A DNA stretch of 64,000 nucleotides, taken from positions 868,001 to 932,000 of the forward strand of contig NZ_NBWU01000001.1 of NCBI RefSeq assembly GCF_002514735.1, written 5' to 3'. Made by a program: the position numbers and the translations under genes. Positions 4,550-12,402 of the stretch are shown here, one piece after another. The notes under the pieces were generated by a model. That model saw only the letters and a list, made by a program, of their open reading frames with translations. It did no database searches and was not told where the DNA came from. The stretch's first letter is position 1. Each line of letters starts with the position of its first letter. Origin of the DNA: Sediminicola luteus (GTDB taxonomy: Bacteria > Bacteroidota > Bacteroidia > Flavobacteriales > Flavobacteriaceae).

Positions 4550-4763
4550 TCTCACATAAAATTTTTGATTGAAGAGTATCGCATCGTTCGATAGGCTTTG
4601 TTATGTTTTGGTTTGATAAAACCGCGACCACCAAGAAGCTAACATTCGTTTGAATAGATGAAAATCTTACTTACGCCTGCCTATTGGATTATTGATAAGG
4701 TGCAATCATTCCGTGGTAGATTTAGTGAGAACTTTGGTTTCAAATGACCGGAACTGCGAACAG

Positions 4764-4798
4764 CTCCCTCTCCTTTGGGGGAGAGCGGGGGTGAGGGT
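4764..4798. repeat. GC-rich REP-like dispersed repeat, copy 1
   Basis: A CTCCCTCTCC arm, a short spacer, then GGGGGAGAG and GGGGGTGAGGG. A second copy of the same design and orientation lies at 20398-20436. Such CCCTCTCC/GGAGAGGG elements recur between genes in many bacterial genomes; their origin here is unknown. Confidence 0.6.
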
Positions 4799-4979
4799 AA
4801 ACCGAAAGCATATTTTATTGGATGGTTTTAAAATTCCTGTTAGAAAACACGTTCACTAGTTTGTTTTCGCTACCGAAACTCCGTTGAAAGTGACACTTAG
4901 GCTAGCTGCCAAACACCTCAAGAGCCTATGCCCTACCCCATTTTCAAGGTAGTTAGCGACATATAGCTAATTGTAGGCA

Positions 4980-5016: not shown

Positions 5017-5535
5017 ATGAGCATGGAACCCAAAACCCCAGCGCAGTCGCGCACTATATTGACCGATTTGGTCTTACCCAGTGAAACCAACCCTTTGAAC
5101 AACCTTTTCGGGGGCGAACTATTGGCCCGTATGGATCGTGCCGCCAGTATCGCCGCCCGTAGGCATAGCCGTAGGATCGTAGTTACCGCCTCGGTAAACC
5201 ACGTAGCCTTTAACCGGGCCGTGCCGGTGGGTTCGGTGGTTACCGTAGATGCCGCCGTTTCGCGCGCCTTTAGTTCTTCTATGGAAATCTTTATAGACGT
5301 TTGGATCGAAGACCGCTACTCTGGCGAGCGTACCAAGGCCAATGAGGCCATTTATACCTTTGTTGCCGTAGATGATACCGGAAAGCCTACCAAAGTTCCG
5401 GAAATACGCCCTGAGACCGATTTGGAGAAGGAACGGTATGCCGCCGCCTTAAGACGTAAACAATTGAGTTTGGTGTTGGCGGGGAAAATGGATCCTTCCC
5501 AAGCTACCGAGCTGAAGGCTTTGTTTATGGGGTAA
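5017..5535 (+). CDS. Acyl-CoA thioesterase (hotdog fold, YciA/BFIT type)
   Basis: Hydrolyses acyl-CoA to free acid and CoA in the cytoplasm. Seen: single hotdog domain (about residues 10-130) with the N-N-L-F-GGELLARMD block (about 24-40) that carries the catalytic Asp in this family, and the V-A-x-N-x-A-x-P-V-like stretch near residues 60-75. Length of 172 aa fits single-domain members. ATG 5017 and ATG 5023 (MSM) are both possible; the promoter position allows either. Its last codons are duplicated 3.3 kb downstream at 8803-8847, see the repeat entries. Confidence 0.9.
   Translation: MSMEPKTPAQSRTILTDLVLPSETNPLNNLFGGELLARMDRAASIAARRHSRRIVVTASVNHVAFNRAVPVGSVVTVDAAVSRAFSSSMEIFIDVWIEDRYSGERTKANEAIYTFVAVDDTGKPTKVPEIRPETDLEKERYAAALRRKQLSLVLAGKMDPSQATELKALFMG
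5504..5531 (+). repeat. Direct repeat, left copy (3' end of thioesterase gene)
   Basis: 28 bp encoding the thioesterase C-terminus (TELKALFMG). 27 of 28 bases recur in the same orientation at 8816-8843, on the far side of the Fur/TonB module. Confidence 0.85.
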
Positions 5536-5644
5536 AAATCTGGCGCTCCCTTTCACCCTGGTTGTTCTATTTACGGTCTAAAATCTTCCTTTTATTTTAA
5601 ACCTCATGCTAAAGGTCATTTAAGAAAAAGTGAAGCAGCTGCAT

Positions 5645-6061
5645 TTAGGATCCGTTACATATATCGCAGATACCTTTAACAACTACGTTGGCATTTTTTG
5701 AAACAAAACCAATGGGTACTTTTATTTCTGGAATTTTATAATCAGTTAAACAAACGGTCTCATGGCAATGATCACAATGAAAGTGTAGGTGTAAATCGGA
5801 CTCCATCGCACATGTACATCCTTGCTCGCATAAAGCGTATTTGGTGATTCCGGTACCATCATCTATTTGATGTACAATATCTTTTTTTTCAAATGTTTTG
5901 ATGGTTCTATATAATGTTGTCCTATCGACTTTATCGAAAGTGTTCTCTAGGTCACTTAACGTAACCGCCACCTTTTTATTCGCAAGAAACTTATAGACAA
6001 GCAATCGCATAGCTGTAATGCGAATATTTTTTGATTTTAATCGTTGTTCTATGGTTTCCAT
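5645..6061 (-). CDS. Fur-family metalloregulator
   Basis: Winged-helix metal-sensing repressor. Seen: N-terminal HTH with TAMRLLVYKFL and the recognition-helix stretch DRTTLYRTIKTFEK (about residues 45-60), then a metal/dimerisation half with the His-rich segment HLHFHCDHCHETVC (about 92-105) and a terminal CDIC, giving two CxxC pairs for a structural zinc. 138 aa, normal. It starts 2 bp after the stop of the TonB receptor, so it is cotranscribed with it and likely autoregulates the module. Zinc (Zur-like) or another divalent metal is inferred; the sequence does not settle which. Confidence 0.88.
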   Translation of the reverse strand: METIEQRLKSKNIRITAMRLLVYKFLANKKVAVTLSDLENTFDKVDRTTLYRTIKTFEKKDIVHQIDDGTGITKYALCEQGCTCAMESDLHLHFHCDHCHETVCLTDYKIPEIKVPIGFVSKNANVVVKGICDICNGS

Positions 6062-6063
6062 GA

Positions 6064-8250
6064 TTAATGATGTTCTTCGTTTCCAAACGGTTTAATAATT
6101 AGTCCTACACTAAAAATGAACCCATCCGTAGGTGCATAAATCTCAGGGAAAACCGGGTTTTCGTGGGGTGGTAATACCAATGGCGAAAACCTGCTTTGTC
6201 TTCTATCGGTAAAGTTTTCGAAGTTTACAAAAACACTACCCAACTTAAAGTTACGCATTACCAACAAACCCATGGTTACAAAATCCGTGGTTTTATTCCC
6301 ATTGGATAAGAACTGTTTGCCTGTGTAATAGGTTTCATAGCCAATTCGCCACGTATCGGATTCGTACATTAAAACACTGCCCGCATTGTGTTTTGCCGTT
6401 AATGGTTTTTGTGGATTTCCCGCTAAATAATTCAGCTTGGTATCGATCAAGGCATAATTTAAGAACCACCTAAAATCTTTATAAGTAAACTTAATATTGG
6501 TCTCCGCACCTTTGCTCAAGATGTTATCCGGGGCATTTTCGAATTTAAAAAACCCATTGTCCACTGAATTTAAAAGTAATGCATCATGTATTGCCGTAAC
6601 ATAGAATAATTGATTCATTGAAAACCCTACTTCATCGGTTATGCGGGTTTGATAGTTCACATCAAAATTTATCCCATACGAGCGTTCGGCATCTGTAGCA
6701 GATTTATCGATGGCCAATACATTTTCAAAATTTATATATTCTGCTTCCTCTGTAAACATATCAGGTATCTTATACCCTAATCCACCACCGATTCGACTCG
6801 AAAACCCACCATTGGTTTTGTAGAGCAACGAAACCCTCGGCAAAGGAAAAAAGCCGAAATCCGTATTATAATCCGCTCTCAACCCTGTTTCTAAAATCCA
6901 ATGTTCAGACAGGTCGAAGATGGTGTTTGCAAACGCACCCAAGGTTATATCCCTTTGATTGCGTTGCATAGGCGAATCTTCATTCTCCACAAAACTTGAG
7001 GTGTACAGATTGGCGCCGGTTATCCAATCTGATCTATCTAATGTTCTGGCATAGGTGAGCTCAGAAAATGAATTGATTTGTTGACCTTCAAACCTTAAGT
7101 CGGGAACGATAAGGTTTCTATCAAAGAAAGAAACACTATTCTTAAACTGTAACGAACTCACAGTATCTAACTGTGTTCGATACACCAACTGACCGCTCAG
7201 CCGTTTTGAATTGTTTTCTTCGGTATATTGATGAATGCCATTCTCGCCATTCTCTATTTTATTAATATCGCCACCAATTCTGTCGTCATAAGTACCGTTT
7301 AACCCAAACCATATCGTTGTTTTGTCTGATGGATAATAAAACACTTTTGGGTTAAACGAAATAGAGGTTGTTTTTGGCAGATTACTAAACTCATCATCAT
7401 CTGGGTCGTAGGCTTTTTGGTAATGGCCAGAACCATAAAGTGAAAATCCGAATTTCTTATTGCGCTGGCTATAAAAAATATTCGCCGTACTTCCCAAGGC
7501 TTGTGTCTGGGTAAGCATAATATCAAATGTAGGTTCTTCATTTGGTGTTTTGGAAACCATATTCACCAATCCAGCAATGGCCCCACCACCATAAAGAGTC
7601 GATGAACTTCCTTTTATGATTTCAAATTGTTGTAAGTCTAATGGTGGAATTTGTAAAATACTTAAACCACTTGAAAAACCTCCGTATAAAGGAAACCCAT
7701 CTCGTAAAAGTTGGGTATATCTGCCGTCAAGACCTTGTATTCTAATATTAGTATTTCCACTACTTAAAGAGGTTTGTTGCATTTGAATTCCCGTACTTTC
7801 ACGAAGAACCATCGAAATATTGGTTGGGTTCATAATGGCTTTTTCACCTAATTCCTCAACACCGATAAATTCTATTCTTGTTGGAATTTTCTGCACCGTC
7901 CGCGTGCTTCGTGTAGATTGCAAAACGACCTCTTCCAGTTCATGACCACCTTCTTTAAGATAAAATGCATAGTCGGTATCACTAGGTACTTTAATGGTGG
8001 TTTCCAAGGTCTCAAATCCTATAAATGAGATGGAAACCACATATTGGCCATAGGGTATTTCAGTAAAATGGGCAATGCCATCAAAATCTGAAACTGCACC
8101 TTTTTCTAGTGCCTCAAAAAATACGGTTGCGCCCATCAAAGGCTCGTTATCTGCCTCAGAAACGATTTTAATAGGTATTTCGGTGCTTTGCGCTTTTGCC
8201 AAAAAGCACAAAAAAGCGGTGAGCAAGATGCTCAGCATGTGTTTTTTCAT
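6064..8250 (-). CDS. TonB-dependent outer-membrane receptor with carboxypeptidase-like N-terminal domain
   Basis: Predicted energy-dependent importer. Seen: signal peptide ending near AKAQ (about residue 21), a CarboxypepD_reg-like beta-sandwich (about 25-105; PLMGATVFFE, GQYVVSISFIGFE), a plug domain with IRIQGLDGRYTQLLRDGFP and SSSTLYGGGAIAGLVNM (about 165-230), and a 22-strand-type barrel to a C-terminal beta strand ending near FSVGLIIKPFG. 728 aa from ATG 8250; an upstream in-frame TTG is less likely. No SusD partner follows, and a Fur-family gene sits immediately downstream, so a metal or metal-chelate substrate is inferred. Confidence 0.9.
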   Translation of the reverse strand: MKKHMLSILLTAFLCFLAKAQSTEIPIKIVSEADNEPLMGATVFFEALEKGAVSDFDGIAHFTEIPYGQYVVSISFIGFETLETTIKVPSDTDYAFYLKEGGHELEEVVLQSTRSTRTVQKIPTRIEFIGVEELGEKAIMNPTNISMVLRESTGIQMQQTSLSSGNTNIRIQGLDGRYTQLLRDGFPLYGGFSSGLSILQIPPLDLQQFEIIKGSSSTLYGGGAIAGLVNMVSKTPNEEPTFDIMLTQTQALGSTANIFYSQRNKKFGFSLYGSGHYQKAYDPDDDEFSNLPKTTSISFNPKVFYYPSDKTTIWFGLNGTYDDRIGGDINKIENGENGIHQYTEENNSKRLSGQLVYRTQLDTVSSLQFKNSVSFFDRNLIVPDLRFEGQQINSFSELTYARTLDRSDWITGANLYTSSFVENEDSPMQRNQRDITLGAFANTIFDLSEHWILETGLRADYNTDFGFFPLPRVSLLYKTNGGFSSRIGGGLGYKIPDMFTEEAEYINFENVLAIDKSATDAERSYGINFDVNYQTRITDEVGFSMNQLFYVTAIHDALLLNSVDNGFFKFENAPDNILSKGAETNIKFTYKDFRWFLNYALIDTKLNYLAGNPQKPLTAKHNAGSVLMYESDTWRIGYETYYTGKQFLSNGNKTTDFVTMGLLVMRNFKLGSVFVNFENFTDRRQSRFSPLVLPPHENPVFPEIYAPTDGFIFSVGLIIKPFGNEEHH

Positions 8251-8295
8251 TGAAAACAAAAATTGATTAACTAAATTTTGACCCTAAGTCTTGTA

Positions 8296-8613
8296 TTAGC
8301 CAATCAATTGTGGCGGTTGCCAGATGTTGTAAAGAAAATCGAACCTGTAAATAGGTTGGTAGGTCGCTATTACTTGCGTAGAAATCTTTGGGTAAACTTT
8401 AAGTTCATAAGCTTCAATTGCCTGATAGGTAATTGACATTCCACAGCAGTTACATATACAAGTACTAGGGCAAGAATCGTCGTTATCTTGGCCATGGTCG
8501 TGATTTGAACTCAATTCATCAAGATGTAAATCTTCTTTATTCGTTCCATCAGAACAAGGCGTAACAGCCAAAATCAGAAACAAAACCGCTAATATGGTCG
8601 AGAAGTTTTTCAT
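8296..8613 (-). CDS. Small Cys/His-rich exported protein (resembles DUF6660)
   Basis: 105-aa protein, probably exported: hydrophobic N-terminus MKNFSTILAVLFLILAVTPC, then an acidic His-containing stretch (HDHGQDNDD) and a dense cysteine cluster CPSTCICNCC near residues 49-58, suggestive of metal binding. The size and CxxxCxCxCC pattern resemble proteins annotated DUF6660 next to TonB receptors in Bacteroidota, by recollection. First gene of the three-gene module; ATG 8613 chosen because the promoter element lies just upstream, excluding the longer reading. Confidence 0.7.
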   Translation of the reverse strand: MKNFSTILAVLFLILAVTPCSDGTNKEDLHLDELSSNHDHGQDNDDSCPSTCICNCCGMSITYQAIEAYELKVYPKISTQVIATYQPIYRFDFLYNIWQPPQLIG

Positions 8614-8618
8614 CACCG

Positions 8619-8626
8619 CAAAGATA
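8619..8626 (-). promoter_or_regulatory. -7 element TATCTTTG of the Fur/TonB module
   Basis: Read on the minus strand, TATCTTTG matches TAnnTTTG. Expected transcription start is around 8614-8616, directly at the ATG (8613), so this message should be leaderless. There is no TTG at the usual 17-23 bp spacing, which is consistent with a regulated promoter. Confidence 0.6.
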
Positions 8627-8638
8627 ACCATTAAAAGA

Positions 8639-8653
8639 TGCAATGCCATTGCA
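8639..8653. promoter_or_regulatory. 7-1-7 palindrome, candidate operator for the Fur-family regulator
   Basis: TGCAATGCCATTGCA is a perfect inverted repeat of 7 bp around one base, the geometry typical of Fur-superfamily boxes. It lies 12 bp upstream of the -7 element, where it would overlap the -33 region, and in front of a module that encodes a Fur-family protein. Confidence 0.5.
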
Positions 8654-8802
8654 AAACCAACTCAAGCACTGTTTCTTAACCCCGTATCGAACACGTTTTG
8701 CCCAGTGACTTTTTATCCTAAAGAAGTTTGTATCGATTCTTTCTATACCATAAACCAGCAAAAGACAGGGGTACCACCAACGCCATTCGACCGTCTTTTT
8801 AC

Positions 8803-8847
8803 TTGCCGGAAAAATCTACCGAGCTGAAAGCTTTGTTTATGGGTTAG
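8803..8847 (+). pseudogene. Relic of the thioesterase 3' end
   Basis: Read in frame, this stretch gives LPEK-STELKALFMG-stop, matching the intact gene's C-terminus LAGK-(MDPSQA)-TELKALFMG-stop with a short internal deletion. Upstream of 8803 the similarity disappears. It includes the right direct repeat (8816-8843), and its stop overlaps the stop of the DsbA-like gene on the other strand. Confidence 0.75.
8816..8843 (+). repeat. Direct repeat, right copy
   Basis: Differs from 5504-5531 at one of 28 bases. Together the two copies bracket about 3.3 kb holding the Fur/TonB/Cys-rich module. Confidence 0.85.
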
Positions 8848-9476
8848 AGATTTAGCTTTTCACTTAATCCCAGAATCAAATTTTCCGGTTTAAAATACCC
8901 TGAAGCAATCACCCGTGCTGTTTCGTCTTCTTGCAATACCAAGGTCGGGAATCCTTGGGCCCATTTCCGGGCCTCTTGGAATTCGGTTTGGGTTTTCCCT
9001 TTATTTTCGGCCGACAACCAATCCGTTGTAAAATCACTATAAGGTAACTCAAGGGCTTCCATTAGACTTTGATAGCTTTCAGGCACATCCAATCTTTTCC
9101 CTTTTTGGAACAATAATGTTTGTATGGCAGAAGCAATATGAACCGAATGTTCGGGCCGTTGCGATTTGGCCCATACAAAGGCCGCACAGGGCTCCTGGCT
9201 ACTAAAAACATAATTGGAATCCTGTACCAAATCAAAATAGGCTTGGGAGATGGTCACCCCTGTAGTCTGCTCCAGTCTTGGGGTATGTTGGGAAATAAAT
9301 CCGTAGAGATCCGTTCCTCCAGCCGGGGCCTGGGGTGGCAACCACATGCCACCTACTAATACTTCAATGGGCAGGCTGTCACCGAAATGATTTTGTACTT
9401 CTTTTATACTCGCACTGTTGCCATAACACCAGCCACAATGCGGATCCATGATATAGATCAACTTCTTTTGGGTCAT
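8844..9476 (-). CDS. DsbA-family thioredoxin-fold protein
   Basis: Thiol oxidoreductase of the DsbA/FrnE-like superfamily. Seen: active-site CGWC (HCGWCYG, about residues 14-20) after the first beta strand, an inserted helical domain, and a C-terminal thioredoxin strand with the cis-Pro region GFPTLVLQED (about residue 180). 210 aa from ATG 9476; a GTG start 13 codons upstream would overlap the next gene. No signal peptide, so it is probably cytoplasmic. The substrate is unknown. It ends where the thioesterase relic ends, suggesting these two genes were once directly convergent. Confidence 0.85.
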   Translation of the reverse strand: MTQKKLIYIMDPHCGWCYGNSASIKEVQNHFGDSLPIEVLVGGMWLPPQAPAGGTDLYGFISQHTPRLEQTTGVTISQAYFDLVQDSNYVFSSQEPCAAFVWAKSQRPEHSVHIASAIQTLLFQKGKRLDVPESYQSLMEALELPYSDFTTDWLSAENKGKTQTEFQEARKWAQGFPTLVLQEDETARVIASGYFKPENLILGLSEKLNL

Positions 9477-9496
9477 AAACTGTTTAAGATTTGAGA

Positions 9497-10720
9497 TTAC
9501 AGCGGATGTATCCACTGTTGAGGATTCAATTTTTTCGAATCTTGGTAGAGATAGAATTTTAGTCGGGTCTGCTGCGTATTCCGATTGGTATAAATTTCTC
9601 CCAAAGCTTCTTTGGCCGCCACTTTATCTCCCTTTTTTACATAGAGTTTGGATAGGTTGTAGTAGGTGGTAATATAGTTTCCGTGTTTTACCTGTACCCC
9701 GAGATTACCCCCTGGCACCGATAAAATCGCGATAACCTCCCCTTTAAATATGGACCGGGCCGGGGTACCAGCATCGGTAGCAATAATAACCCCATTGTTT
9801 TGGTGTTTTATCCCCGGATAAACGGCATCTTTGTACACCCCAAAGCCCTTGGATATAATGCCGCGCTCCACGGGCCAGATATGGCGCCCTTTATTGGCCG
9901 AAAAATTATCGGCGACCAACTTGGCCTCCGGGGTCAACGCGAACTTGGTACTGCTGCCCTTTTTACCCGATTTTTTGTTGCTGGCGGCAATGGCGGCACG
10001 AATAAGCTTGTCGATCTCCCTATCGATCCTACGGGCCTCTTGCTGTTTCTTTTTTAAACTTGCGGCGTATTTGCTTTCGTTCTTTTTTATACTGGCCAAA
10101 AGGGAGTTTTGGGTCTCTTTTTCGGCCATCAGGGCCTGACGCTCCTTTCTATTCGCTGCCAATAGGGCTTCTTTGGTCTTGCGCTGCTCGGCCAACTCTT
10201 GGTTCTTTTTGGTCAACACCTCTGTCTTAACCACGATCTGCTCCCCTTGTTCTTTACGATAGCTGGCGTATTGTTTTAAATACTGCAGCCGTTTATAGGC
10301 CTGTAAAAAGTTCTCGGCAGACAATAGGAACATGACCCGGTTTTGCTGGGAACGGTTTTGGTAGGACTTTTGGATCATGGCGGCATAATCTTCCCGCAAG
10401 AGCTTTAAATCGTTTTTAAGCTTGCCTACTTGGCGCACATTGGCATGGATCTGACGGTTGAGTAGATTGCTTTCCCTATTGGTCAATCGAATAAGTTGTT
10501 GTCTCTTATTGATCCGGGTATCTAAAGCCTCCATTTGGTCGAGTACCGAACCTTTTTCTTTGCGCTCGGCCGAAAGCAAACGGTTCATTTCGGCAATCTC
10601 TTTCTGTAAGCGCTTGCGCTGGGCCTCCAGTTCCTTTTGTTCTTGGGTTTGGGCCAAGGTCAGAAAAGACGCCATTAAAGCACAAAAGAGTAAAAAAAGG
10701 TATTTTGGTTTGGCCCTCAT
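9497..10720 (-). CDS. EnvC-like coiled-coil protein with degenerate LytM/M23 domain
   Basis: Predicted periplasmic activator of cell-wall amidases. Seen: signal peptide ending about residue 23 (LTLAQ), a long coiled coil rich in Gln/Glu/Lys/Arg (about 25-255), and a C-terminal M23-like fold (about 285-400; TDAGTPARSIFKGEVIAI, HGNYITTYYNL). The canonical zinc-ligand pattern HxxxD ... HxH is not conserved (YNL in place of AHL), as in EnvC, which activates rather than cleaves. 407 aa. It follows the DUF4292 gene with no gap, so translational coupling is likely. Confidence 0.88.
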   Translation of the reverse strand: MRAKPKYLFLLFCALMASFLTLAQTQEQKELEAQRKRLQKEIAEMNRLLSAERKEKGSVLDQMEALDTRINKRQQLIRLTNRESNLLNRQIHANVRQVGKLKNDLKLLREDYAAMIQKSYQNRSQQNRVMFLLSAENFLQAYKRLQYLKQYASYRKEQGEQIVVKTEVLTKKNQELAEQRKTKEALLAANRKERQALMAEKETQNSLLASIKKNESKYAASLKKKQQEARRIDREIDKLIRAAIAASNKKSGKKGSSTKFALTPEAKLVADNFSANKGRHIWPVERGIISKGFGVYKDAVYPGIKHQNNGVIIATDAGTPARSIFKGEVIAILSVPGGNLGVQVKHGNYITTYYNLSKLYVKKGDKVAAKEALGEIYTNRNTQQTRLKFYLYQDSKKLNPQQWIHPL

Positions 10721-11500
10721 TTATTTCAGCACGATTTCTTTGTAACCTTCCGGGACCCGGTACGGAAAACGCATATTGGCATTGAGTTCCATATTTCGGA
10801 ACTCAAGGTCAATGGTACTACTGTCCTTGTCCGTCATGGCCTCAATATGCACTTTATTGGGCAGGGCCTGCCCCGCTACTTCCTGGTAATCGGTATAGGC
10901 GATATGCAGCTTCCGGTTTTTGGCCGGTTGGATCAATTGCTGGTCGTCTACCCTTAGGTTACGGGGTTCGAGGCGCAACACGGATTTGAAGAATAGATCG
11001 GCTGCCTTGGGTTTTAATTCATAGGCATCGGCCAAGGTCTGCATACGGTATTTCCGTTCACGTAAATCTTCCAAAGCCTGTCCCAGCAATAGATTTTGCA
11101 CTTTGTCAAAATCGAGCTCTACCCCTAATATTTCCGATAGGTATGAAAAATCACCTTCAAAAAACTCGCCCTCCAGTTTGTTATAGAAAGAAACCTTTTC
11201 GGGCGTAATCTTGGCTTTTACGATACCGAGGGTGGCCGAAATCCAGATGACCGAATCCTTTTGCATACGAAGGCTTACATTAAAACCTTGGGAATCGTCG
11301 CCATTGGTATGATCGATCTTTACCCTTCCGCTTAGTGTATTAAAGCGTAATTGATTGTCGTAATGTCCCTTGATCACCCCTTTTACCGAAGCTTTTGGGT
11401 CTACTTCGGCCCCCGCCAATACCTTTTTTGATGAACAGGCCGTCAGCAGGGTAAAACATAACAGCAGACCGAATAGGTTTATGGACTTCAACTTCGTCAT
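10721..11500 (-). CDS. DUF4292-type lipoprotein
   Basis: 259-aa lipoprotein: signal peptide with lipobox LTAC (Cys about residue 22), then CSSKKVLAG, with no acidic residues after the Cys, so probably facing the periplasm. The body is beta-rich with the pattern seen in DUF4292 proteins of Bacteroidota (LSGRVKI near 58, VWISATLGIVKAKITP about 88, LLLGQALEDLR about 137) and resembles LolA/LolB-like lipoprotein carriers, which is inference. It overlaps the TPR gene by 4 bp (ATGA) and abuts the EnvC-like gene: one operon. Confidence 0.85.
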   Translation of the reverse strand: MTKLKSINLFGLLLCFTLLTACSSKKVLAGAEVDPKASVKGVIKGHYDNQLRFNTLSGRVKIDHTNGDDSQGFNVSLRMQKDSVIWISATLGIVKAKITPEKVSFYNKLEGEFFEGDFSYLSEILGVELDFDKVQNLLLGQALEDLRERKYRMQTLADAYELKPKAADLFFKSVLRLEPRNLRVDDQQLIQPAKNRKLHIAYTDYQEVAGQALPNKVHIEAMTDKDSSTIDLEFRNMELNANMRFPYRVPEGYKEIVLK

Positions 11501-12402
11501 TGGATTATCTTGCTAAAATAGGTATTTGCCTTGTTTTGATCGCCAAGAGCGGTATAGGCATCCCCAAGGGTTTTGTACAATTTGTTTGCCAAAGGGCCTT
11601 CTTCCAATAAAAAATCGAGGCCATCCTTTAAATAGCTTACGGCTTCTTTGGGCTTACCTGTTTGTAAAAGCGCTTGGCCTTGGGCATAATAGAGATAAGG
11701 CTGGGCCGGGAAAAGCTCCAAGGCCTCGCCCGACACTTGGGCCGCTTCCTTGAATTTTCCTTGCGCCAATAGGTTTTCCAATTGGGTGGTATAGGCCTGC
11801 ATGGGATTCTCCTTTTTGGGAGTAGCCTGCACCTCAGGGGCCGTGGCTATGCCCTGGCTTGGTTTGGGTGGTGCCATTTGATCCAACTTGGCCGTATAGT
11901 CCGATTTAAAATCGCTTTGGGGTAGTTCTTGAAGCCATTTACGGGCCAAGGCCCATTGCCCGTGGGTATAGAACACCTTCACTAGGTTTTTCCCTACCTC
12001 TGGATGGGAACGGAGTTCGGCGGGCGCCATGGTTTCAAAAGGTTTTCCCTGTACCGCGAGTACCTTAATGTATACCTCCAAAAACCAAGGGTTGGCCGGC
12101 TCAAGTAACAACACATCCAATGAGGTGGTTTCGGCATTCGGATAATCCTTGAGTTGCAGATACACTTTAGAGAGTTCGTGCATTACCGCCCGGTTTTCGG
12201 GTTTAATGGACTGGGCCACCAATAAAGCATCGCGGGCACGGTCGTAATTTTCAATGCCTTTTTGGGTGAGGGCCTCGAAAAAACTTTCTTGAAAATCATC
12301 GGAATACTCCTCTAAGAACAATTCAGCACTTCCTTCTTCTTGGGCATAGGTAAACCCAATAAAAAGCAATCCGAGCAGCAATGTCTTGAAAATTCGTTCC
12401 AT
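11497..12402 (-). CDS. Tetratricopeptide-repeat protein, exported
   Basis: 301-aa protein with signal peptide (MERIFKTLLLGLLFIGFTYAQ) and two TPR blocks, one at about residues 30-110 (NYDRARDALLVAQSIKP, LKDYPNAETTSLDVLLLEP) and one in the C-terminal third (GKFKEAAQVSGEALELFP, GKPKEAVSYLKDGLDFL, GDQNKANTYFSKII), joined by a Pro/Ala/Gln-rich linker. A protein-interaction scaffold is inferred. ATG 12402 was chosen because the signal peptide starts there. First gene of the TPR-DUF4292-EnvC-like set, which may act together at the envelope. Confidence 0.85.
   Translation of the reverse strand: MERIFKTLLLGLLFIGFTYAQEEGSAELFLEEYSDDFQESFFEALTQKGIENYDRARDALLVAQSIKPENRAVMHELSKVYLQLKDYPNAETTSLDVLLLEPANPWFLEVYIKVLAVQGKPFETMAPAELRSHPEVGKNLVKVFYTHGQWALARKWLQELPQSDFKSDYTAKLDQMAPPKPSQGIATAPEVQATPKKENPMQAYTTQLENLLAQGKFKEAAQVSGEALELFPAQPYLYYAQGQALLQTGKPKEAVSYLKDGLDFLLEEGPLANKLYKTLGDAYTALGDQNKANTYFSKIIQ

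What the first reader, a model, noticed from the sequence alone, without database searches (positions are those of the whole stretch)
5504..8847. Fur/TonB/Cys-rich module bracketed by duplicated 3' end of the thioesterase gene
The last 28 bp of the thioesterase coding region (5504-5531) recur with one mismatch at 8816-8843, and the flanking relic (8803-8847) still reads as its C-terminus up to the stop, with a short deletion. The module in between runs opposite to the thioesterase gene and looks AT-richer than its surroundings. Without it, the thioesterase and DsbA-like genes would be directly convergent. This is the signature of an inserted island, either by integration at a gene 3' end or by homologous exchange that carried along a foreign copy of the tail. 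No integrase is present inside.
Basis: partly seen in the sequence, partly recalled or inferred. Interest (0 to 1): 0.72.

Follow-up and report, generated by a model that had tools for sequence, protein, structure and literature searches.

The report
Metal-type cassette inserted beside thioesterase gene
A three-gene, probably metal-related cassette acquired from a relative landed just after a housekeeping gene and left a second copy of that gene's tail behind; two other genera show similar tail scars beside extra genes, so this is a readable example of how bacteria pick up genes without a dedicated integration enzyme.

Summary
The last ~31 bp of the thioesterase (TE) gene (5501-5531) recur at 8813-8843 (94%), the only significant second match in the 4.56-Mb genome (E 2.7e-6), in frame to a stop. 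Between the copies lies an AT-rich opposite-strand trio: Fur-family regulator, TonB-dependent receptor, Cys-rich DUF6660 protein. It looks foreign: GC3 0.30-0.38 against 0.44-0.58 in the adjacent genes; its receptor is most similar (83%) to genera with distant core genes; in 15 other genera the receptor lies at other places, in some beside metal-efflux and mobile-element genes. In relatives TE faces an M23 peptidase gene. That gap is a hotspot: convergent in 99 of 99 resolved genomes, under 150 bp in 39, at least 1 kb in 21. Two other genera carry extra in-frame TE tails beside toxin-like cargo: G305 in the same gap, G038 at a distant site absent from a congener. No integrase lies in the insert. 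I favour recombination anchored in the TE 3' end (homology-facilitated illegitimate or single-crossover) over site-specific integration. No congener of the host is held, so donor, empty site and exact junctions here remain unproven. New member of a known kind, with a bolder reading open.

The parts
5017..5535 (+). acyl-CoA thioesterase (4HBT) gene; left flank and bearer of tail copy 1
   Evidence: Pfam 4HBT E 7e-16; single copy in own genome; matched at E 1e-40 in 139 of 149 family genomes
5501..5535 (+). tail copy 1: last codons of the thioesterase
   Evidence: direct repeat with 8813-8847
5610..8655 (-). widest extent of DNA homology with the cassette in other genera (left edge from L096-L099, right edge from L102; 69-77% identity over 15 loci)
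   Evidence: blastn against 15 module loci
5645..6061 (-). Fur-family metal regulator gene
   Evidence: Pfam FUR E 2e-8; subtype not resolved, NCBIfam PerR/Zur/Fur all far below cut-off
6064..8259 (-). TonB-dependent receptor gene
   Evidence: Pfam Plug E 9e-18 and CarbopepD_reg_2; 65-83% matches in 15 of 148 other genomes
8296..8649 (-). small Cys-rich protein, DUF6660 (start perhaps at 8613)
   Evidence: Pfam DUF6660 E 7e-9
8656..8805 (.). filler between cassette homology and relic; no match found; its last ~16 bp may be a decayed LAGKM stretch of a TE gene
8806..8847 (+). tail copy 2 (relic): PEKSTELKALFMG and stop, in frame
8844..9515 (-). DsbA-family / DsbM-like gene, rare in the family and probably an earlier arrival; its stop overlaps the relic stop
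   Evidence: PDB DsbM 5hfg E 2e-13; 8 of 397 genomes
9497..10720 (-). M23 peptidase gene, the conserved right-hand core neighbour
   Evidence: Pfam Peptidase_M23 E 5e-15; convergent with TE in 99 of 99 resolved genomes

Best explanation
A horizontally acquired Fur / TonB-receptor / DUF6660 cassette (likely metal acquisition or homeostasis) was inserted downstream of the thioesterase gene, at a family-wide hotspot between the thioesterase and the M23 peptidase gene. Insertion was anchored by homology in the thioesterase 3' end: one side by crossover in the thioesterase, the other by illegitimate joining inside the resident thioesterase tail (or single-crossover duplication of it). The gene therefore has one tail, and a second tail stays against the DsbM-like gene. 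Shown: repeat, foreign composition, patchy cassette, conserved flanks, hotspot, similar tail scars in two other genera. Inferred: the recombination route, the order of events and the metal role.
For: Repeat unique in the genome and in frame. GC3 contrast. Incongruence: G102 (M23 64.5%) has a receptor of 74%, G085 (M23 47.0%) one of 83%. Receptor at 65-83% in 15 of 148 other genomes, with no TE gene in the 15 regions. TE/M23 convergent in 99 of 99 resolved of 110 genomes, gap under 150 bp in 39, at least 1 kb in 21. G305: second TE tail of about 195 nt, 87%, in frame to the stop, in the same gap between toxin-like cargo units; 17 of its 26 differences from congener G107 are at third codon positions. 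G038: 84-nt in-frame TE tail (9 differences from the own TE, 8 at third positions) beside toxin-like genes, 392 kb from the TE gene; congener G260 lacks tail and cargo there and has an 80-bp TE/M23 gap where G038 has 2.5 kb. In all three the tail stop faces cargo on the opposite strand. Relic lengths differ (about 42, 84 and 195 nt), which suits recombination better than a fixed crossover site. No integrase in the insert.
Against: No congener of the host is held, so neither an empty site nor a donor with the cassette beside TE was seen; 0 of 15 cassette regions contain a TE gene. Extra tails are rare: 3 of 397 genomes gave two tail matches (G038, G305, and G004 with two whole TE matches), and the window's short relic is below that search; the exact pattern gave a close same-strand pair in 2 of 397. 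In G305 the intact gene keeps the genus-like tail and the relic is the divergent one, and in G038 the tail sits away from TE; neither follows from a single one-sided event at the TE locus. Host competence is untested; one flavobacterium, F. johnsoniae, was reported not competent under the conditions used (PMC7965970, abstract start).
Confidence: 0.58

Rival explanations
1. Site-specific integration: the TE 3' end is an attB for a tyrosine recombinase (as the icd 3' end for e14, recalled), the two 31-bp copies are attL and attR, and the integrase was lost or acted in trans.
For: Direct repeat ends at a gene 3' end and the reading frame of the gene is kept; some cassettes in other genera lie near tyrosine integrases.
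Against: No integrase between the repeats; the other tails are about 84 and 195 nt and diverged, not a fixed core; one of them is not at the TE gene; flank repeats well above shuffles were seen at 1 of the 15 other cassettes (L104; L100 marginal), and not of TE sequence.
Confidence: 0.18
2. Local tandem duplication of the TE 3' end happened first, and the cassette entered later between the two copies by an unrelated route.
For: Relic and own tail are very similar (1 of 23 differences); G045 shows that a TE tail can be amplified locally as part of a non-coding repeat array.
Against: Needs two independent events; in the window and G305 cargo sits between the copies, and in G038 a tail lies far from the gene beside cargo.
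Confidence: 0.15
3. Old resident genes: the cassette is ancestral here and the repeat is coincidence.
For: None found beyond the host genus holding a single genome.
Against: Repeat E 2.7e-6 genome-wide; GC3 contrast; cassette not hit in the TE loci held for 109 other genomes.
Confidence: 0.02

Closest known systems
[quoted passage not shown] passages seen)
   Same: Conserved flanking core genes, variable cargo, no integrase seen
   Different: Their model is double crossover in both flanks, which leaves no extra tail; recombination rates of the flanks were not measured here
Sequential displacement of T6SS effector/immunity modules in Vibrio, proposed to run by homology-facilitated illegitimate recombination (PMC5361080; passages seen)
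   Same: New module enters by one anchored end and displaced gene ends stay behind in an array; close to the G305 case
   Different: Here the extra tails belong to a housekeeping thioesterase, the window's cargo is a metal-type cassette, and one tail (G038) is at another locus
Elements integrating in 3' ends of protein genes with replacement tails, such as e14 in icd (recalled; search listing only)
   Same: Gene frame kept at the junction; direct repeat at the far end
   Different: No integrase; tail lengths differ between scars

Membership tests
Integrase-less core-gene-flanked hotspot | same core genes flank the site in many genomes | tested here: met
   99 of 99 resolved genomes convergent TE/M23; 11 of 110 unresolved
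Integrase-less core-gene-flanked hotspot | varied cargo at the site | tested here: met
   gaps from a 6-bp overlap to 6.8 kb with different ORFs; 21 of 99 at least 1 kb; congeners G260 and G038 differ, 80 bp and 2.5 kb
Integrase-less core-gene-flanked hotspot | raised homologous recombination in flanking core genes | not tested
   needs several strains of one species; the host genus holds one genome
Homology-facilitated illegitimate recombination | one end joined through homology | tested here: inconclusive
   second TE tail present, donor unknown
Homology-facilitated illegitimate recombination | other end joined at microhomology or no homology | not testable with these tools
   donor and empty site not in hand
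Integrase-mediated island at a gene 3' end | direct repeats, att-like, at both ends | tested here: met
Integrase-mediated island at a gene 3' end | integrase gene in the element | tested here: not met
   three genes only, none an integrase
Integrase-mediated island at a gene 3' end | constant crossover core among insertions | tested here: inconclusive
   three tails of about 42, 84 and 195 nt all end at the stop, but start at different points

The most novel reading that the evidence does not exclude
The thioesterase 3' end serves Flavobacteriaceae as a portable homology handle: cassettes (toxin/immunity-like, metal-type, disulfide reductase) travel between species joined to a piece of this housekeeping gene's tail, are stacked one after another in the TE/M23 gap, each leaving a tail, and now and then land elsewhere with the tail still attached (G038), all without a recombinase of their own.
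Probability: 0.3. Interest if true: 0.58.

Novelty: new member of a known kind. Interest (0 to 1): 0.4.

Why it matters
It adds a family-wide hotspot in Flavobacteriaceae with readable scars in three genera, which makes a usually invisible route (recombination anchored in a core gene) traceable by sequence. It also shows a Fur/TonB-receptor/DUF6660 unit away from the metal-efflux genes it accompanies in some other genera, a lead on the role of DUF6660 (no paper with that term in the library).

Tried and rejected
Chance repeat: rejected. Cassette on phages or plasmids: no DNA match in plasmids (near mode) or phages (distant mode); ten plasmid records have receptors, all under 46% identity. Empty TE/Dsb junction: not found; the one genome-contig scan with the Dsb protein gave a single 21% match in Marinomonas. 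G045 as a scar: rejected, its repeats are a non-coding tandem array that includes the TE tail. Other double matches of the tail pattern: of 16 genomes with two matches, those outside the own genome and G305 lie on different contigs, except G038 (same contig, 392 kb apart, opposite strands); of the four places fetched for G063, G239 and G038, L121 and L123 are not TE sequence, L122 holds G239's real TE gene, and L124 is the G038 tail. Flank repeats around the other 15 cassettes: only L104 stands out (121 nt, not TE), L100 marginal. Origin of the filler 8650-8812: no match beyond the possible LAGKM stretch. A 47-nt match on the far side of the G038 cargo is a short palindromic repeat and was not used as evidence. 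Efflux partners elsewhere in the own genome: MerT-like and DUF3703 proteins not found, without positive control. Fur subtype and receptor ligand: not resolved. Promoter and terminator scan: within the range of shuffles. Paper searches: DUF6660 none; metal element with receptor in flavobacteria none with 5 of 6 terms.
Full report
What is there. The thioesterase gene (TE, 5017-5535, +, Pfam 4HBT) is followed by three genes on the other strand: a Fur-family regulator (5645-6061), a TonB-dependent receptor with plug and carboxypeptidase-regulatory-like domains (6064-8259) and a small Cys-rich DUF6660 protein (8296-8649); then a DsbA-family gene (8844-9515) and an M23 peptidase gene (9497-10720). 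The DsbA-family protein resembles the solved cytosolic disulfide reductase DsbM (E 2e-13).

The repeat. 5501-5531 and 8813-8843 agree at 94%; in the own 4.56-Mb genome the next match to the right-hand region after the TE tail has E 0.06 against 2.7e-6. The right-hand copy reads PEKSTELKALFMG and a stop; the TE ends MDPSQATELKALFMG. The relic stop overlaps the stop of the DsbM-like gene, as expected if the relic was once the real 3' end of the thioesterase in a tight convergent pair. A further 5' extension of the relic (LAGKM codons, 14-nt deletion) is possible but not significant.

Foreign origin. GC is 0.37-0.41 in the insert and 0.43-0.53 next to it. GC3 is 0.302, 0.359 and 0.381 for the three genes; in the 14 other ORFs measured in the first 17 kb it is 0.438-0.578 except 0.394 for 1799-2308. 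In 149 family genomes, 23 (own included) have a receptor match at E 1e-100 or better; the own one and 15 others are at 65% identity or more. Identity does not follow kinship: M23 64.5% but receptor 74% in G102; M23 47.0% but receptor 83% in G085. No TE gene was found in the 15 other cassette regions (10.9-18 kb each).

What the cassette is. Regulator, receptor and DUF6660-type protein are detected together in 6 of the 15 other loci, the regulator in 12 and the DUF6660-type protein in 8 (one partial regulator and five at 46% counted). In L096 the neighbours are an E1-E2 ATPase with a His-rich N-terminus, a MerT/HMA protein, DUF3703 and a tyrosine integrase; other loci show, by eye only, CusB-like, cation-diffusion and conjugation genes. 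So the cassette is probably metal-related cargo of mobile regions; metal and direction of transport are unknown. The own genome gave no match to the L096 MerT-like and DUF3703 proteins (no positive control).

The site. 110 genomes were looked at (own and G305 included; G305 was chosen for its double tail and G038 was among those with two pattern matches, the rest for similarity or assembly quality). TE and M23 were both found in 99, convergent in all 99; 11 were unresolved within 6.7-9 kb. Gaps: under 150 bp in 39, 150-500 in 17, 500-790 in 1, 790-1000 in 21, 1000-2000 in 5, 2 kb or more in 16. Of five loci of the 790-1000 class that I read, four hold an aldo/keto-reductase-like gene (named by eye) and one another gene. 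Larger gaps hold varied genes. Neither the cassette nor the DsbM-like gene was hit (E 1e-10) in the TE loci of the 109 other genomes, as far as the stretches held reach. The DsbM-like gene is rare (8 of 397), so it too is probably an arrival, older and partly ameliorated (GC3 0.438).

Scar in G305. A degenerate pattern for the TE tail matched in 301 of 397 genomes and twice in 16; only in the own genome and G305 do both lie on one contig within 4 kb on one strand. In G305 the TE tail (5900-6093 of L119) recurs at 9314-9508 with 87% identity, in frame to the stop; the cargo consists of paralogous toxin-like genes (one with Tox-MPTase3, E 6.5e-10) and small neighbours that could be immunity genes. 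The second tail differs from congener G107 at 26 of 189 positions, 17 of them third positions; the intact gene's tail differs at 7. So the relic seems to have evolved as part of a working gene in another lineage. The match to G107 covers the tail and about 55 nt beyond its stop (250 bp, 81.6%). In a gapless scan of 122 loci (some genomes twice), L119, L144 and the window scored 258, 86 and 53; the rest 29 or less, like reverse-strand controls (up to 30). L144 (G045) is a non-coding tandem array and is not counted.

Scar in G038, found while checking this report. A 42-aa TE tail searched in 397 genomes matched in 359 and twice in three: G004 (two whole TE matches on two contigs), G305 and G038; the window's own relic is too short to be seen so. 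In G038 an 84-nt tail (LRRKQLSLVLAGKMKLAEATELKALFV and stop) lies 392 kb from the TE gene, its stop facing two opposite-strand genes without Pfam match, the larger weakly similar (25%, E 5e-5) to the toxin-like gene of G305. It differs from the own TE at 9 positions (8 third) and from congener G260's TE at 8, while the two TE genes differ at 11: it looks like a working-gene tail of congener-level origin. In G260 the region is collinear on both sides but holds two other genes instead of tail and cargo, and its TE/M23 gap is 80 bp. Here the tail cannot be the end of the resident TE gene displaced in place; it came with the cargo or was carried there with it.

Mechanism. Double crossover in both flanks would replace a segment and leave no second tail. 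A second tail needs either a circle or tandem carrying a TE tail (single crossover), or one homologous end and one illegitimate end inside the tail. The latter is the published proposal for Vibrio T6SS arrays (PMC5361080, passages) and was reported in competent bacteria and, at low efficiency, in E. coli conjugation (PMC3240628, title and abstract start in the listing). Natural competence is reported for Riemerella in the Flavobacteriaceae, but not for F. johnsoniae under the same conditions (PMC7965970, abstract start). In all three genera the tail stop faces opposite-strand cargo (window: the DsbM-like gene). A stacking order fits: each cargo arrives with TE on its left, and a later arrival pushes the older cargo and its tail to the right. 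In the window the two tails are near identical (1 of 23; other genomes at least 2 from the relic and at least 3 from the own tail, 109 genomes), so both probably belong to the host lineage or a congener.

Odds. The G038 tail, found on checking, moved the best explanation from 0.55 to 0.58, the site-specific rival from 0.20 to 0.18, tandem duplication from 0.17 to 0.15, the bold reading from 0.20 to 0.30 (its interest if true from 0.55 to 0.58) and interest from 0.36 to 0.40.

Verdict. A well-supported horizontally acquired insertion at a hotspot, with a duplicated core-gene tail as scar. The kind is known; the site, the scars in three genera and the Fur/receptor/DUF6660 unit away from efflux genes are the new points.

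Noticed in passing
L124 (G038) 8989-11650: Ectopic in-frame TE tail (84 nt) beside two toxin-like opposite-strand genes, 392 kb from the TE gene; absent from congener G260.
   Followed up: yes
L119 (G305) 6088-12370: Two paralogous toxin-like genes sharing a 1133-nt stretch (95.6%, 5' part and upstream) with different 3' parts, stacked in the TE/M23 gap with a TE tail between the units.
   Followed up: partly
L144 (G045) 579-1949: Non-coding tandem array whose unit includes the thioesterase tail and an intergenic repeat.
   Followed up: partly
L104 (G060), oriented 7053 and 11016: 121-nt direct repeat flanks the receptor cassette there, far above shuffled controls; nature unknown.
   Followed up: no
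TE/M23 gap in G012, G027, G073, G078, G090, G101, G118: A large gene of about 900-1220 aa with a similar start by eye, on the TE strand, sits in this gap in seven genomes, twice in G090.
   Followed up: no
window 8844-9515: DsbM-like gene found in only 8 of 397 family genomes; its start region overlaps the M23 gene end.
   Followed up: partly
window 4757-4800: Intergenic stretch CTCCCTCTCC...GGGGGTGAGGG looks like a dispersed intergenic repeat.
   Followed up: no
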